Shown: positions 2,959 through 15,461 of the stretch, piece after piece
Layout of the letters: every line of letters starts with the position of its first letter
Position numbering within the stretch: the first letter of the stretch is position 1
Origin: a virus
DNA: 34,594 bases
IMG/VR virus record: IMGVR_UViG_2162886007_000001
Span: 1-34,594 of that record
Direction: 5' to 3' (one strand)
Notes under the pieces: model-generated
Seen by the model: only the letters and a program-made list of their open reading frames with translations
The model's database searches: none
Told to the model about the DNA's origin: nothing
Program-made: the position numbers and the translations under genes

Positions 2959-3404
2959 TAGCTGCCGCAGGCTATGCGGAACTCCCTCATTTGATCCGCA
3001 GCCACAGATACGCGAACCGGGTCATGCCATGGCCCGAGTTCCAAGCGCGTGAGAACCTAGCAGCGCTCCGATCCGGCTTGGCCTATGCCGGAGCCATGCG
3101 CCGGCTCAATCCAACCGGCGTATCGATGAACCTCACGAATCGCCTGCGCGTGGAGTTTGGGTTCGATGCAGACGGCATGATTGGAGCCGACGACATTTCA
3201 GCGGCCACTGATCTAATCATCAATCTGCGCATGTGGGCCAACTCTTTGGCACTGGCTGGCAGTATCGCCGGGTTGCGCGAGGATATGCGGCGCGTCGTCG
3301 GAGGATCCCATCCATTCCCGAGCAAGGGAACCAAGCGAGGGCCGCGCAACCGGCCCAATCGCACTACGTGCTGGTGGGAGGAGGAGTTCTATGGCCGCAG
3401 CTGA
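2949..3404 (+). CDS. Hypothetical early protein, 151 aa
   Basis: The ATG at 2949 overlaps the previous stop by 10 bases. The protein is mostly helical, with one hydrophobic helix (WANSLALAGSIAGLREDM, about residues 96-113). The C-terminus is strongly basic and proline-rich (KGTKRGPRNRPNRT), ending in WWEEEFYGRS, and could contact nucleic acid. It overlaps the start of the PrtN-like gene by 14 bases. No family recognised; it is the largest protein of the operon. Confidence 0.6.
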   Translation: MQLIAAAGYAELPHLIRSHRYANRVMPWPEFQARENLAALRSGLAYAGAMRRLNPTGVSMNLTNRLRVEFGFDADGMIGADDISAATDLIINLRMWANSLALAGSIAGLREDMRRVVGGSHPFPSKGTKRGPRNRPNRTTCWWEEEFYGRS

Positions 3405-3606
3405 GCATTCCACCTTCTGGCTGCTCTACGGCCAGTACGGCCCCACGATGACCGTGGAGAAGTTCCGCGAGGAGTTCTTTCCGAAGATGACCATGAAGAC
3501 CCTGCAGAACTGGATCGCCAGGGGTGACGCGCCCAGGCCGATCAATGGGGTTCTCGATGTTCGAGACGTGGCATCGTGGTGGGACGAACAAAGGAAAGGC
3601 GGCTAG
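3391..3606 (+). CDS. PrtN-like (pyocin activator family) DNA-binding protein
   Basis: 71 residues, with GGAGGAGG 6 bases before the ATG. The sequence follows the pyocin activator PrtN pattern: an N-terminal LLYGQYG, a helix (VEKFREEFF), a putative recognition segment (TLQNWIARGDAPRPI), and a C-terminal VRDVASWWDEQ. PrtN activates pyocin genes by binding P-boxes. Phage members of this size are often found beside integrases, where they could act as excisionase or transcription factor. It is the last gene of the PL operon, and the integrase lies about 1.2 kb downstream across the toxin-antitoxin pair, so an excisionase role is plausible but unproven. Confidence 0.65.
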   Translation: MAAAEHSTFWLLYGQYGPTMTVEKFREEFFPKMTMKTLQNWIARGDAPRPINGVLDVRDVASWWDEQRKGG

Positions 3607-3618
3607 GGGCCGCCTTTT
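3595..3618. terminator. Bidirectional terminator between convergent genes
   Basis: A 9-bp perfect stem AAAGGCGGC / GCCGCCTTT with loop TAGGG spans the stop codons of both converging genes (plus stop 3604-3606, minus stop 3603-3605). T-rich tails exist on the plus side (TTTTCC) and, less strongly, on the minus side. It closes the PL operon and the toxin-antitoxin transcript. Confidence 0.85.
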
Positions 3619-4034
3619 CCTTCGCGCTTCTGTCGGGCAGGAAACAGTCCACGCACTACTACCAGACAAACAGCAATGACATTGATCGTTGCGCCACTTG
3701 TAAGGGCGATCAAAGCTTTGTCACTGAGTGCAGGTTTTCCCATCGCTGTGTTAGATATGGCCGTGGCGCCGAACAACACGATCCAAAACCACACGGCCAG
3801 CCTTGCCAATTCAAACGCCTGCTCGGCGTACTTGCCACGCATCTCAGTATCGGCGCGCCGCGCGTCGTTTTTTGCTTTGATGCGATCAACTCGAGCTTCC
3901 CAGGCAGCAGCTTCACCGGTCACTGCGCCTTTGTCAGACCCCGCCGGTATCTGTAACTCCGCCTTAAGCTGGAAATTCCGGATCTGCTCATCGATGGACT
4001 CGACTCCAGGCAACTCGGGCTGCTCGTTCGCCAT
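3603..4034 (-). CDS. Two-TM membrane protein, candidate toxin paired with Panacea antitoxin
   Basis: 143 residues. The N-terminal 80 residues are soluble and charged, with likely coiled-coil character (IDEQIRNFQLKAELQ, then AAAWEARVDRIKAKNDARRA). Two membrane helices follow at about 87-108 (LARLAVWFWIVLFGA) and 114-137 (ALIALTSGATINVIAVCLVVV), and a basic C-terminus ends the protein. Its ATG overlaps the stop of the Panacea-domain gene by one base (TGATG), so the two are translationally coupled, antitoxin first. Panacea domains neutralise many unrelated toxins, some of them membrane-active, which is why I propose a toxin role. No residue in this protein proves it; it could instead be an exclusion protein. 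An upstream in-frame start at 4187 would lie deep in the antitoxin gene and is rejected. Confidence 0.6.
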   Translation of the reverse strand: MANEQPELPGVESIDEQIRNFQLKAELQIPAGSDKGAVTGEAAAWEARVDRIKAKNDARRADTEMRGKYAEQAFELARLAVWFWIVLFGATAISNTAMGKPALSDKALIALTSGATINVIAVCLVVVRGLFPARQKREGKGGP

Positions 4035-4507
4035 CAGTTCGCACCGGTCTTGGTGAAATACTCCCGCATCGAGTCTTCGGAAATTACCGCCGAGCGCCCC
4101 TCTTTGGCGGCGCGCTCCCATGGCCCACCCGGAACATGGGTCATTTGCGACAGCTTTGTGGCGGGCATGTCTTTGTAAGCCCGCCAAACGGCCTCAAGGA
4201 TGGACTGCGCCTTCCTATCCTCGGCGTTCATTCGCCACGGCTCGTCGTCGTCATCGAACGGGAACGGAACCTCTTTCAAGATTGGGCTTGCGCCGTAGTC
4301 CTTGAAGGACCTGTACACGCTCGGATACACGGGGCCGTACTGCCACGCCTGCGGCTGCTCATCAAGGAGGTTCTCTCCTGCCAGGGCCAAGCCATGCCCC
4401 TGCAAGAAGTACAGGAGCTTCTGCAATTTCATGTTGGTAACCAACACGTCATCGCGCCGCCCAAGGCGGATAAATTCGTTCGCTGCTGAGATGGCAAAGT
4501 GCTTCAT
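4034..4507 (-). CDS. Panacea-domain (DUF4065, SocA-like) antitoxin
   Basis: 157 residues. The N-terminal half carries the family's signature: ANEFIRLG, then MKLQKLLYFLQGHGLAL (about residues 26-42), then QAWQYGPVYPSVYRSFKDYG. The C-terminal half has a helical region (AQSILEAVWRAYKDM) and a HVPGGPWERA motif also typical of the family. Panacea domains are known as promiscuous antitoxin modules, and SocA acts as a proteolytic adaptor for its toxin. It is transcribed divergently from the integrase, opposite to the flanking PL operon, as expected for a gene expressed in the lysogen. Two 10-bp direct repeats lie just upstream. Confidence 0.85.
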   Translation of the reverse strand: MKHFAISAANEFIRLGRRDDVLVTNMKLQKLLYFLQGHGLALAGENLLDEQPQAWQYGPVYPSVYRSFKDYGASPILKEVPFPFDDDDEPWRMNAEDRKAQSILEAVWRAYKDMPATKLSQMTHVPGGPWERAAKEGRSAVISEDSMREYFTKTGAN

Positions 4508-4523
4508 ATCGCCCCCGGAGCGG

Positions 4524-4553
4524 GTCTACCGCTCGCCACACTAGTCTACCGCT
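4524..4553. promoter_or_regulatory. Direct repeats upstream of the antitoxin gene (candidate operator)
   Basis: GTCTACCGCT occurs at 4524-4533 and again at 4544-4553, exactly 20 bp apart (two helical turns). The array lies 17-46 bases before the antitoxin start. On the minus strand the upstream copy overlaps a -10-like TAGACT. Phase and position suit cooperative binding of an autoregulator. Confidence 0.55.
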
Positions 4554-4559
4554 GTCTCA

Positions 4560-4824
4560 GGAATTGAAACTGCCGGAAGCCCGGCGCTGAACGCCCCGTG
4601 CACCACTGCTGCACCAATGTGGGCGCAAGCACCTGAATTCAAACGGAATCCGGCCCATCCATCATGGGGGCCACGGAAAGACGGATATCGTTTGAATTCA
4701 ATGTCTTACGCATGTTTCGGTGCATCCTTGGTGCGCCGGGACTCCCTGTAAGTCCCTGTTTTTCCCTGCTGATCCCGGTGTAATGTACCCGTGCTGCACC
4801 AAGCAGCGGGGAGTGCACCAAGAC
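4560..4824. other. Putative attP and integrase control region
   Basis: No gene is visible here. The motif TGCACCA(A) occurs at 4599-4606, 4610-4617, 4795-4802 and 4814-4821, and inverted inside CTTGGTGC at 4727-4734. TCCCTG is repeated three times between 4743 and 4776. A 12-bp inverted repeat is present (see separate entry). Clustered short repeats beside a tyrosine integrase are what arm- and core-type integrase sites look like. The core crossover sequence cannot be named without the bacterial attachment site, and I see no tRNA 3' end. Confidence 0.45.
4634..4700. repeat. 12-bp inverted repeat in the putative attP region
   Basis: TGAATTCAAACG (4634-4645) is the exact reverse complement of CGTTTGAATTCA (4689-4700). 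The spacer is 43 bases. It may be a paired integrase or excisionase binding site. A transcription terminator is unlikely because no T run follows and the arms are AT-rich. Confidence 0.6.
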
Positions 4825-5913
4825 ATGGCAGTAGTCGAAAAGCGCGGAAAGAAGTGGCGGGCAATGGTCCGCATCAAACCCCATCCTACCGCCTCGAAGA
4901 CCTTCAACGGTCGCAAGGCCGCTGAGGATTGGGCTCGCATTACAGAAGATGCCCTTCGGGCGGGCCTGCCTCCGCCGCAGGAGAGCATGACGCTGGAAAC
5001 CCTCATTGATCGGTACATCAAGGAGATGGACCGCTTCAAACCCATTTCAGCCACCAAGCGCGGAAACCTGCGCCGATGGGTGGAAAGCCTCGGCGACCGG
5101 GAAGTGTCCTCACTCACCGGGCAGGACATTTTGAACCACATCCGGGCCAGGACAGCTCCCTCCGCTGCGCTGAACGGCGGTAAGGCACCCGGCCCGGCAA
5201 CCATGGCGATGGAACTCGGGTTCCTGGCTGAGGCCCTGGCGGCTGCTCGGTCGCTATGGAACATGACGATCCCGGACGTGGTGACCGCCGTCCGGCCAGT
5301 GCTGCGCCGCGCCGGAGCCATCGCCAAGCCAGAGGAGCGCGACCGACGCCCGACAGCCCAAGAGCTTGACGAGCTGGCCGCCTTCTACAAGTTCAACTTT
5401 GGCGCCATCCCGATGCGCGACCTGATCCCGTTCGCCATCGACTCGGCAATGCGCATGGGCGAGATTGTTGCACTGCGGTGGGAAGACTACCAAAGCGGTG
5501 ACAAGCCGATGGTCCTGATCCGGGACAGAAAGGATCCCAAGGACAAGAAGGGCAATCATCAATGGGTGCCCCTACTGGGGCGGACAGCAGAGATCATCGA
5601 GAGCCAGCCCCGCACGGGACCGCTGATCTTCCCATTCAAGTCAGACAGCATCGGGGCGTCGTTCCGCCGCGCCTGCAACCGGCTACAGATCGAGGATCTT
5701 CACTTCCATGACCTGCGCCACGAGGGAACGTCCAGGCTGTTTGAGCGGGGGTACACCATTCCAGAGGTCGCCATCGTGACGGGGCATAAGGATTGGAAGT
5801 CCCTCAAGCGGTACACCCAGCTTGCCCCTAGCTCATTGCACCGGGGCGAATCGAACCTCACTCGCCCCCTGGCGGACGCCTACACGCCGGGAAACCCAGG
5901 GCGCGAGGATTGA
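4825..5913 (+). CDS. int: Tyrosine-family site-specific integrase
   Basis: 362 residues from the ATG at 4825; a longer reading from 4720 has a cysteine-rich, unlikely N-terminus. An N-terminal arm-binding segment (residues 1-50) is followed by a SAM-like core-binding domain (about 54-165) and the catalytic domain (about 175-345). The catalytic set is complete: Arg210 in SAMRMGE, Lys236 in RDRKD, His295 and Arg298 in HDLRHE, His321 in TGHKD and the nucleophile Tyr330 in KRYTQL. It recombines attP with the host attB; attP most likely lies just upstream. The Panacea gene is transcribed away from it on the other side of that region. Confidence 0.95.
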   Translation: MAVVEKRGKKWRAMVRIKPHPTASKTFNGRKAAEDWARITEDALRAGLPPPQESMTLETLIDRYIKEMDRFKPISATKRGNLRRWVESLGDREVSSLTGQDILNHIRARTAPSAALNGGKAPGPATMAMELGFLAEALAAARSLWNMTIPDVVTAVRPVLRRAGAIAKPEERDRRPTAQELDELAAFYKFNFGAIPMRDLIPFAIDSAMRMGEIVALRWEDYQSGDKPMVLIRDRKDPKDKKGNHQWVPLLGRTAEIIESQPRTGPLIFPFKSDSIGASFRRACNRLQIEDLHFHDLRHEGTSRLFERGYTIPEVAIVTGHKDWKSLKRYTQLAPSSLHRGESNLTRPLADAYTPGNPGRED

Positions 5914-12653: not shown

Positions 12654-12966
12654 TCTTCGCCCCGATGCGCTCAAGGAGCTTGCTTGCCTCGCGCTCTGCG
12701 GCCTTGATTTCGGCCTCAGGGTCGGGATCCTTGTCGCCGCCTCCAGGCGCTCCTGTCTCCCTCAGCAACTGCTGTAGGCGGCACAGCAGGGCAACCGATT
12801 GAACAGCGGTCTTCCTGCACCATGCGGCGTCGCCACGCTCGTCCTTGCTCATGTCGCACAGGGGCTTGTCGGATGCCGTCCAGTTGGACGGGTCAGCGTC
12901 ACGGATAGCCACCTCGGCCAGGGATTCGGACACATCCTGCAGGCGCTTGCGCTGGTCGTCTCTCAT
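12643..12966 (-). CDS. Putative terminase small subunit
   Basis: 107 residues, helical and charged (RKRLQDVSESLAEVA, then TAVQSVALLCRLQQLLRE, then a C-terminal EIKAAEREASKLLERI). The assignment rests on position and size: it directly precedes and overlaps the large terminase and has the all-helical, acidic-linker composition of small subunits. The ATG at 12966 overlaps the preceding stop (TGATG) behind GGAGAGG. No HTH signature is obvious. Confidence 0.7.
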   Translation of the reverse strand: MRDDQRKRLQDVSESLAEVAIRDADPSNWTASDKPLCDMSKDERGDAAWCRKTAVQSVALLCRLQQLLRETGAPGGGDKDPDPEAEIKAAEREASKLLERIGAKNAA

Positions 12967-15461
12967 CACACCTCTCCTGCCATCGCGGTCAGGTCGGGAG
13001 CCCGGTCGGGCACTGGCTCACCCGGCTCCCACCAGTATTTCTGGCCGAACTCGCGCTCGCTACGCTGCTTCATCTTGCGCAGATAGCCGGGGGAGAAATA
13101 CTCCTGCAGCTGGTGGAAAATCAGATGGTCAAGGGCGCCCTTCGCATACCAGAGGTTCGCGCCTGGGGTGTTCCCCTTGACGAATCGAACAGCCTCCGCC
13201 CCCGCATGCGTGTCCTTCCCCTGGACTGCCTCCATGATGTTGCCCTGAGTCAGTTTCAGTACGTCCTCCGCAAGTCCCGCGACCGGGCCAAGCGCAGCGG
13301 CAAAGGGGGATTGGCCATAGCGCGACGACTCAGAGAATAGGAAGTCGCCATAGAGGCCGAGTGACCCTCCCTTAAGCATCGCTGCTATACCGAAACGGGG
13401 GTCTGTCATGTCGCGCGGATCACGACCAGAAAGCATGTCGCTGATCTGCATGGACACTGCTCCCATGACAGTGGTCGAGGCAATCAGCGTGGCGAGATAG
13501 GCAGCCCGCCCAGTCCCCGTGGGCATCGACCAGCCTCGCTGAATATGACGGGTCATCATCGCGATGGGGAACGACTTGAACAGGAAGAACGACCGGGTCA
13601 GCTCGCCCTTCCAGGTGCCGCGCTGTAGGCCGGTCATCATCATTGCCCGCTCTTTCGCGCCGGGCTCAATGACCGCAACGTCGGTCTCCTCCAGAACTAC
13701 GCCAAGCAGGCGGGTAGCTGCGTTCTCGCGCAACGTTGCTGGGTCACCCAAGCCGGCAAGCTTGGCGTCGGGGATGCGATAGATTGAGTCTGGCGTCAGC
13801 ATTGTGTCGTTACCGCCGCCCCAATCTTCCAGCTGGGCCAGCCTCCACACTGAATAGTCGGTGTCAGTGATCCCCTTCGACAGGAGTATCCGGTGGTCAG
13901 CAGCGTCGATTGCCTTGAGGTCGGCGTGGTCCCGCACCACCGATCCCATTGCGTGCATGAAGGTGACCCCATAGGCGCGTTTGCGCGCCTCGGTAAGCGC
14001 GTTCAGGCCACTGGCTCGCAGAGTTACGCCAGCCAGCTTGTTGGAGAACGAGCTTGCCAGGCTGTCATTGCCGAATCTATTCAACGACGAAAGCAGAGTG
14101 TTCATAGCCAACCCTGCCCGCAGCGCCATGCGCTTTTCCATCTTGTTCGCTGGGTTGAGGGCTGCCAGCTCGTTCGAGAACAGACGCATCGCCGGAAGGT
14201 TGTTAACGTGCGCCGACAGGTACATGGTTGCGTCGTCTGAGAACGACGTGATGACCGCAGACCCCAAGCGGGAAGCGGTCATCCAGCTGCGTAGGGTGTC
14301 GAAGGTCTCAGCCAGCCAGCGCGAGGCCACAGGCTGCGTCCTGCCGGCCACTTGGTTGTAAAGGTTCTCGCTTGTGATCGCGCGCTTCTCAAGTCGACCG
14401 GCTGCGTTGGGATCAAGGAGGGCTTGCTCCTGTAGCGCCTTGTCGCTGAACAGCTTGAACGCGAGGTCAGGATTCGGGCCAAAGGTCTCCACAAGGGCAA
14501 TGTCCTTGGAGACTCCGGAAATATGCCCGGTCAGAACTTCATAAAGCGAGCGTTCGCCGTAGTTCTGTTGGTACTGCAGGTAGGCGTCAGCGTCCTTGAA
14601 GTGCACCTGCCGGGACTCGTTGCCTCGGTTTGCGCGCATACCTCCGCCCATTCCACCTCGGCCCGGCTGCAGCTTGTTGATGCCGCCAGTAGCGATGCTC
14701 TCCCAGGCATGGCCGAGGAATTCCCCAACCTCAACGTCAGTCATGCGGCTGCCGTCCTCGTTCATGTACCGCTTGCGGTCGAGGAGAGGCAGCGTGTCCT
14801 GAATCCACTGCACACGGCCTGCTTTGGCCACCAGAGACTGGGAATGGTGATGCGGCATGCCCCAGTCATCGAGTTGGCCAACGTCGCCACCTGAGCGGTT
14901 GAAGCGCTCTCTCAGCGAGCCAGTGATGCTATGGAACACCTTCGCGCCCGCTGCTGCATCCGCGTCGCCCGTCTTCATCCCATGCAGCTCCCGGACAACG
15001 TTGCTGACGCCTTCGGCGTTCTCAATCAACCCGAAGAACTTGGGGTTCGTGGCCTCCAGTGTGTCGAGCATCTGCCGGAGGGCATCACGCTCGATGGCGC
15101 GGGCTCGGGTCTCCACAGACAGGGCGTTACCTTTGCCATCCGCATGGAACGCAACCATTCGGTCCAGTCCGTCGAACTTGTCCGCGAACTGTTTGAGGTG
15201 GTTCTCCACTCGGTCGTGAGCGAGGATGGTCAAAGCGATCCGCTGCTTCTTCTTCCCGGCTTCGCGCACCAGCTCTAGCGCGGCCTCCTTCGCCGCCTCC
15301 ATGAGGCGCTGGTCGGGTGACCTCGCGAGCTGTGCTTGCGGATCCCGAACGGAGTTCTGCCGCATGTGTCGACTGATTCGAGCCTCAATGCCCTGAATCT
15401 CGGCGGCATTGAGCTTGCGCCCAATTGCTGCGGTTACGGCGTCGATGCATTCGCTTCTCAT
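12966..15461 (-). CDS. Large internal virion protein (T7 gp16-like position)
   Basis: 831 residues, the last and largest of three consecutive internal virion genes. The N-terminal half is strongly helical and charged. Further on are membrane-active segments, for instance around YLATLIASTTVMGAVSMQI, which could form part of the DNA ejection channel. The C-terminus is polar and aromatic (FGQKYWWEPGEPVP). In T7-like phages this position holds gp16, which is ejected into the host envelope ahead of the DNA. Here the transglycosylase is on the neighbouring protein instead. Its ATG overlaps the preceding stop in TGATG. Confidence 0.75.
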   Translation of the reverse strand: MRSECIDAVTAAIGRKLNAAEIQGIEARISRHMRQNSVRDPQAQLARSPDQRLMEAAKEAALELVREAGKKKQRIALTILAHDRVENHLKQFADKFDGLDRMVAFHADGKGNALSVETRARAIERDALRQMLDTLEATNPKFFGLIENAEGVSNVVRELHGMKTGDADAAAGAKVFHSITGSLRERFNRSGGDVGQLDDWGMPHHHSQSLVAKAGRVQWIQDTLPLLDRKRYMNEDGSRMTDVEVGEFLGHAWESIATGGINKLQPGRGGMGGGMRANRGNESRQVHFKDADAYLQYQQNYGERSLYEVLTGHISGVSKDIALVETFGPNPDLAFKLFSDKALQEQALLDPNAAGRLEKRAITSENLYNQVAGRTQPVASRWLAETFDTLRSWMTASRLGSAVITSFSDDATMYLSAHVNNLPAMRLFSNELAALNPANKMEKRMALRAGLAMNTLLSSLNRFGNDSLASSFSNKLAGVTLRASGLNALTEARKRAYGVTFMHAMGSVVRDHADLKAIDAADHRILLSKGITDTDYSVWRLAQLEDWGGGNDTMLTPDSIYRIPDAKLAGLGDPATLRENAATRLLGVVLEETDVAVIEPGAKERAMMMTGLQRGTWKGELTRSFFLFKSFPIAMMTRHIQRGWSMPTGTGRAAYLATLIASTTVMGAVSMQISDMLSGRDPRDMTDPRFGIAAMLKGGSLGLYGDFLFSESSRYGQSPFAAALGPVAGLAEDVLKLTQGNIMEAVQGKDTHAGAEAVRFVKGNTPGANLWYAKGALDHLIFHQLQEYFSPGYLRKMKQRSEREFGQKYWWEPGEPVPDRAPDLTAMAGEV

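What the first reader, a model, noticed from the sequence alone, without database searches (positions are those of the whole stretch)
3603..4507. Panacea-domain antitoxin coupled to a two-TM membrane protein: candidate prophage toxin-antitoxin or abortive-infection module
The upstream gene is a clear Panacea (DUF4065) protein, and the downstream gene overlaps it by one base (TGATG) and encodes a coiled-coil plus two-TM protein. Panacea antitoxins are known to pair with many unrelated toxins, including membrane-active ones. The pair is transcribed against the lytic PL operon, closed by a bidirectional terminator, and sits next to integrase. This is the usual site of accessory genes expressed from the prophage that defend the lysogen. 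I cannot place this toxin in a known family.
Basis: partly seen in the sequence, partly recalled or inferred. Interest (0 to 1): 0.75.

Follow-up and report, generated by a model that had tools for sequence, protein, structure and literature searches.

The report
Prophage Panacea antitoxin with membrane toxin
A phage genome carries a two-gene toxin-antitoxin pair whose small membrane protein belongs to a widespread family of bacterial pore-forming toxins, so it is a fresh member of a known kind rather than a new system.

Summary
Window 4034-4507(-) encodes a stand-alone Panacea protein (PanA) and 3603-4034(-) a 143-aa protein with a long charged helix and two C-terminal transmembrane helices; the genes share one base (TGA/ATG). 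A profile built from 29 PanA-linked membrane proteins, leaving out the window and E. coli, scores the window toxin 63 bits, the E. coli PanT family 40 and the toxin of Gordonia phage Kita 35; 500 segment-wise shuffles of each reach 17 at most. E. coli PanT and the Kita toxin are published membrane-depolarising, pore-forming toxins, and the Kita pair is published as antiphage. In genome draws not selected for PanA, 28 toxin-family hits had PanA upstream in 22 and an M78/ImmA-type peptidase in 4; one lay at a contig end, one had neither. Two PanA residues needed elsewhere to neutralise a membrane PanT are conserved (Y57, H124). Most likely this is a type II toxin-antitoxin pair whose toxin opens the inner membrane when PanA is inactivated, perhaps during infection by another phage. 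Toxicity, trigger and defence were not tested. New member of a known kind.

The parts
4034..4507 (-). panA: stand-alone Panacea (DUF4065/SocA-like) antitoxin, 157 aa
   Evidence: Pfam 6e-19; model pLDDT 92.9 with seven helices and two strands; Y57 and H124 conserved
3603..4034 (-). panT-like membrane toxin, 143 aa: N-terminal helix, long charged helix running into TM1 (about 76-96), short loop, TM2 (about 106-130), basic tail; its ATG overlaps the panA stop by one base
   Evidence: family profile 63 bits; phrog_33656 4e-15 and phrog_13343 1.3e-5
4508..4573 (-). upstream block of panA, nearly identical in three related phages; holds two copies of a 10-nt repeat 20 nt apart and a G-rich ribosome-binding-like stretch
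   Evidence: alignment; repeat D3
3595..3617 (.). terminator-like hairpin shared by the convergent panT and excisionase genes, whose stop codons overlap at its loop (3603-3606)
   Evidence: minus strand; sequence
3391..3606 (+). excisionase-like small DNA-binding protein, convergent with panT (context)
   Evidence: phrog_1300 8e-10; Pfam PyocinActivator 22.4 bits, just under its cut-off of 24.2
4825..5913 (+). tyrosine integrase, divergent from panA (context)
   Evidence: phrog_1 1.7e-48; Pfam Phage_integrase 9e-17

Best explanation
This is a prophage-borne type II toxin-antitoxin pair of the PanAT kind. The downstream protein is an inner-membrane toxin, predicted to have its N and C termini in the cytoplasm, that depolarises the cell by forming a pore through its two-helix hairpin. 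PanA holds it inactive by binding the cytoplasmic N-terminal region with the conserved core of the Panacea domain. Loss or conformational change of PanA, about as likely as not during infection by a competing phage, frees the toxin and stops the cell. Shown here: the gene pair, homology of the toxin to published pore-forming toxins, conserved pairing with antitoxins, conservation of the PanA neutralisation residues, purifying selection. Inferred: toxicity, pore formation, direct binding, trigger, defence. The stated confidence is for the toxin-antitoxin pair with a membrane-acting toxin; a defence role alone I put near 0.5.
For: Panacea domain. Toxin homology: BLASTP against E. coli PanT 4e-9 for the single pair; that protein is phrog_13343 at 1.8e-113, which the window toxin also matches at 1.3e-5. 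A 29-seed profile without window, E. coli or Kita gives 63.2, 40.4 and 34.8 bits, shuffles at most 17.0. PanA accession WP_000287252.1, which sits next to this toxin family in 6 of the 8 E. coli genomes I opened (the other two carry variants), is the antitoxin of the validated pair in Table 1 of PMC8832971, whose toxin depolarises and permeabilises the membrane. Partner tally: 22 PanA and 4 M78 of 28. Y56 and H120, needed in B. choladocola PanA (PMC10440598), are Y57 and H124 here, nearly invariant and invariant among 44 PanAs. PanA and toxin distances correlate, r 0.63, 0 of 5000 permutations, 32 pairs.
Against: No experiment on this pair. The toxin model is weak (pLDDT 63) and no complex could be predicted. 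Identity to the E. coli toxin is only 27% over 121 columns. PADLOC has no match for either protein. The distance correlation does not separate co-evolution from shared descent. One of 28 toxin-family hits (L162) has no antitoxin gene beside it.
Confidence: 0.8

Rival explanations
1. The pair is a toxin-antitoxin module, but it serves to stabilise the prophage (addiction) or to act on the host at induction, not to defend against other phages.
For: It lies between integrase and excisionase, where loss of the prophage would also lose the antitoxin; Panacea pairs are mobile and also found in phages (PMC8832971).
Against: Toxin relatives pair with M78 antitoxins of RosmerTA type, and the Kita pair is published as antiphage (PMC10440598).
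Confidence: 0.35
2. The membrane protein is not a toxin but an anchor or superinfection-exclusion protein, with PanA as a regulator.
For: Small phage-borne two-TM proteins next to immunity genes are often exclusion proteins (recalled, from no call); there are no toxicity data for this protein.
Against: Homology to published pore-forming toxins well above shuffled controls and consistent pairing with two antitoxin families.
Confidence: 0.1
3. A decayed or non-functional module carried along in the phage.
For: Some family members are broken: stops or distant PanA remnants in L182 and L189, a split frame in L130.
Against: Here both frames are open and dN/dS is 0.014-0.05 against two related phages.
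Confidence: 0.05

Closest known systems
E. coli PanAT (PanA WP_000287252.1 with PanT, toxin cluster T3 of Kurata et al. 2022, PMC8832971)
   Same: Panacea antitoxin first, toxin second; charged N-terminus and two C-terminal TM helices; homologous toxin; carried by a phage (PhiR47_1)
   Different: 27% identity over 121 columns; genes 22 nt apart there and overlapping by one base here; window toxin is shorter (143 against 182 aa)
RosmerTA of Gordonia phage Kita (RmrT D5 with RmrA D25, PMC10440598); genes 33 and 32 of KU963257 by my assignment
   Same: Toxin is in the same profile family (34.8 and 37 bits); phage-borne; published depolarising, pore-forming toxin with antiphage activity
   Different: Antitoxin is an M78/ImmA-type metallopeptidase, not Panacea
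Bartonella choladocola PanT D11 / T12 with PanA
   Same: Panacea-neutralised membrane toxin; the PanA residues needed there are conserved here
   Different: The toxin does not score with this family's profile (L093, 4.0 bits); common descent neither shown nor excluded
SocAB of Caulobacter (type VI)
   Same: SocA-like Panacea domain (NCBIfam SocA_antitoxin 106 bits)
   Different: Below that model's curated cut-off of 190 bits; the partner here is a membrane protein

Membership tests
PanAT (Panacea type II toxin-antitoxin) | Panacea domain in one of the two genes | tested here: met
   Pfam 69.4 bits, cut-off 25.7; predicted model has seven helices and two strands, as described for Panacea
[quoted passage not shown]
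   One-base overlap; PanA beside 22 of 28 toxin-family hits
PanAT (Panacea type II toxin-antitoxin) | Toxin inhibits growth and PanA rescues | not testable with these tools
   Needs expression assays
PanAT (Panacea type II toxin-antitoxin) | Direct PanA-PanT complex | not testable with these tools
   Only single chains could be predicted; Y57 and H124 conserved
Membrane PanT of the E. coli (T3) type | Sequence homology | tested here: met
   63.2 and 40.4 bits for window and E. coli with a profile that excludes both; shuffles at most 17.0; phrog_13343
Membrane PanT of the E. coli (T3) type | Charged N-terminal region and two C-terminal TM helices | tested here: met
Membrane PanT of the E. coli (T3) type | Membrane depolarisation and pore formation | not testable with these tools
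   Published for the E. coli member (PMC8832971 section 10); inferred here
RosmerTA | M78/ImmA-type metallopeptidase antitoxin (RmrA) | tested here: not met
   The partner is PanA; no PADLOC match
RosmerTA | Toxin related to a known RmrT | tested here: met
   Kita gene 33 scores 34.8 bits (29-seed profile) and 37.0 bits (A4) with this family's profiles; that gene 33 is the published RmrT is my assignment
SocAB type VI system | SocA equivalog score | tested here: not met
   106 bits against a cut-off of 190
PanT D11 / T12 | Toxin homology | tested here: inconclusive
   B. choladocola locus L093 toxin 4.0 bits; distant homology not excluded

The most novel reading that the evidence does not exclude
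One small membrane effector, a helix plus a two-TM hairpin with a conserved polar stretch in TM2, is a general-purpose pore used by phages and bacteria across phyla, and two unrelated cytoplasmic sensors, Panacea and M78 peptidase, are swapped onto it to detect different phage triggers; the window pair would then be a prophage-borne pore module read by a Panacea sensor.
Probability: 0.35. Interest if true: 0.55.

Novelty: new member of a known kind. Interest (0 to 1): 0.33.

Why it matters
It ties a divergent phage gene to a characterised toxin family and links three things by sequence profile: the window toxin, the E. coli Panacea-neutralised pore former and the Kita phage toxin neutralised by an M78 peptidase. 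One effector family with two antitoxin classes makes partner exchange directly testable: which part of the toxin each antitoxin holds, and what each senses. What Panacea senses is still called an open question in the paper read (PMC10440598).

Tried and rejected
Direct search for toxin relatives was poor: tblastn in 50,697 phage records gave one match at E 0.3, and scans by peptide pattern gave 2 and 3 viral loci and none in genome contigs. Working through PanA neighbours succeeded. Fold comparison of the toxin model was uninformative (best Z 6.5, to unrelated long helices), and sequence search of solved structures found no credible relative of either protein. PADLOC matched neither window protein. 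NCBIfam 'Maf-like' for the toxin (0.001, 18 bits against a cut-off of 290) is dismissed. I considered a conserved small DNA-binding neighbour, because E. coli prophages have a PrtN-family gene convergent with panT and the window's convergent gene weakly matches PyocinActivator, but direct BLASTP found no alignment. A fused PanA-toxin chain for complex prediction was considered and not attempted.

Limits of my counts. In one search the downstream ORF with a TM segment was preferred where several overlapped, which favours TM counts, of 96 PanA loci, 6 had no ORF, 14 no TM, 27 one TM and 49 two or more. One search kept the best 80 of 327 loci. The 29 seeds were picked by eye. The tally of 28 uses E <= 1e-6 and leaves out the four centre genomes, which were chosen through PanA, and one repeat (L168). 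At E <= 1e-3 add three weak hits: L170 has M78 upstream; L163 and L171 lie in long unrelated frames. Of the 22 PanA cases, 20 lie within 135 nt between profile ends; L182 and L189 are farther (312 and 218 nt) and have stops in the toxin frame. The exact validated toxin accession WP_000019185.1 was not found; neighbouring alleles were. That Kita genes 32 and 33 are the published RmrTA is my assignment from domain and position.

Papers: PMC8832971, abstract, passages, section 5 part 1 and section 10; PMC10440598, passages and section 4 parts 1 and 3, where text and figure legend disagree on whether Bas59 or Bas60 is countered; PMC13190303, passages. Others were seen only in search listings. Brenes and Laub 2025 was seen only as a citation and is not held, so whether PhiR47_1 PanAT is already known as a defence system is unknown to me. 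Paper searches.

Full report
What is there. The window is a 34,594-base IMG/VR virus record with an integrase, excisionase, S24 repressor, terminase and replication genes, so a temperate phage. On the minus strand, between integrase and excisionase, lie a 157-aa Panacea protein (4034-4507) and a 143-aa protein (3603-4034). The stop TGA of the first and the ATG of the second share one base. A perfect hairpin closes the unit at 3595-3617; the stop codons of the toxin and of the convergent excisionase overlap at its loop. The 66 bases before panA are almost unchanged in two related phage contigs, although the sequence further upstream is not.

Both genes are real. Against the two related contigs the toxin differs by 5 and 7 residues with dS 1.31 and 0.72, and PanA by 4 and 18 with dS 0.43 and 1.54, giving dN/dS of 0.014-0.035 and 0.03-0.05.

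PanA. Pfam SocA_Panacea 69.4 bits. The model (pLDDT 92.9) has seven helices and two strands with no extra domain, the layout described for Panacea (PMC10440598). In Bartonella choladocola PanA, changes at Y56 and H120 abolish neutralisation of its membrane toxin (same passage). By alignment these are Y57, just before the second strand, and H124, just after the fifth helix, in the window. H124 is invariant and Y57 nearly so among 44 PanAs. This fits direct neutralisation by a stand-alone Panacea domain.

Toxin. No Pfam family. The sequence has two hydrophobic segments, a predicted 60-residue helix running into TM1, a short loop, TM2 and a basic tail. The model is of modest confidence. Only the long helix supports 'coiled coil'.

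Placing the toxin. Of 96 PanA loci (16 viral; 80 of 327 genome loci), 76 have a downstream ORF with at least one TM segment (the choice of ORF favoured TM, see Tried and rejected). Twenty-nine were picked by eye for a shared TM2 pattern; the consensus of the 34-row alignment there reads LSDxVxIALxTTTTxNVxG followed by a second hydrophobic stretch and LFP. A profile of the 29, without window, E. coli or Kita, gives 63.2 bits for the window, 40.4 for the E. coli toxin and 34.8 for the Kita toxin; the best of 500 segment-wise shuffles of each gives 17.0, 16.1 and 13.1. Other TM-bearing partners of PanA act as a natural control: none outside the family exceeds 13.9 bits (L130, at 29 bits, is a frameshifted member). 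PHROGs agrees independently: window and E. coli toxins share phrog_13343 (1.3e-5 and 1.8e-113).

Link to experiments. PanA WP_000287252.1 adjoins this toxin family in 6 of the 8 E. coli genomes I opened (variants in 42 and 115). It is the antitoxin of a validated pair whose toxin depolarises cells and lets SYTOX Green in (PMC8832971). Kita genes 32 (Peptidase_M78, 4.6e-18; PADLOC RmrA 3e-15) and 33 fit the published RmrTA, whose toxin is depolarising and pore-forming and whose pair blocks some coliphages (PMC10440598).

Co-occurrence without PanA bias. The toxin profile was run over five draws of 399, 395, 398, 385 and 350 genomes, some shared between draws. At E <= 1e-6, excluding the four centre genomes and one repeat, there are 28 hits. 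PanA lies upstream on the same strand in 22; a Peptidase_M78 gene in 4 (L142, L143, L168, L169); L179 is at a contig end; L162 has neither. Hits occur in 1-2% of the genomes of each draw, patchily, as mobile toxin-antitoxin genes do. The model A4 used here was itself built from PanA-linked toxins, so it may favour them. Within 32 PanA pairs the antitoxin and toxin distances correlate (r 0.63, 0 of 5000 permutations), though descent alone could produce this.

Mechanism. Shown: pair, homology, pairing, conserved neutralisation residues, selection. Inferred from relatives: inner-membrane pore, direct neutralisation, activation on phage infection. A rival is prophage stabilisation, which shares the same biochemistry and differs only in purpose.

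Novelty. The pairing of Panacea with membrane toxins is in print (PMC8832971), and a membrane toxin with an ImmA-type antitoxin is too (PMC10440598). The window pair is a new, divergent member. The profile link between the window toxin, E. coli PanT and the Kita toxin may already be implicit in the published network, whose supplementary data I could not read.

Noticed in passing
window 4034-4507 (PanA model): The predicted Panacea fold matches chain B of the M. tuberculosis DarTG complex entry (7yk3_B) at Z 7.3, rmsd 4.5, over 122 residues, next best Z 3.4, with no sequence match; this is under the tool's Z 8 mark. Paper searches for DarG with DUF4065 or Panacea showed no statement of a fold link in the passages I read.
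   Followed up: partly
window 4610-4821: Three TGCACCAA copies, two of them 19 bases apart, and two TGAATTCAA copies (4634, 4693) sit between panA and the integrase start; possible integrase arm sites. TGCACCAA occurs 4 times in the window against 1.55 expected; 6 of 100 shuffles have as many.
   Followed up: partly
window 3391-3606: The convergent excisionase-like protein weakly matches Pfam PyocinActivator/PrtN; E. coli prophages with the related PanAT also have a PrtN-family gene convergent with panT, but the two proteins do not align by BLASTP.
   Followed up: partly
L142, L143, L168, L169, L170: Toxin-family members paired with Peptidase_M78 genes; for the two tested, L142 and L143, the closest PADLOC models are capP and RmrA or PDC-M69B: RosmerTA-like variants of the same toxin family.
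   Followed up: yes
L076, L077, L100, L103, L116, L124, L131, L135: PanA loci followed by non-membrane proteins that look alike by eye, sharing a stretch around W..I..S..HGxG or HSFGxE; probably a separate toxin family.
   Followed up: no
window 12966-15461: An 831-aa virion protein is 53% identical to proteins of Salmonella phage SPN1S and Enterobacter phage Tyrion; the host of the window phage is unknown.
   Followed up: no
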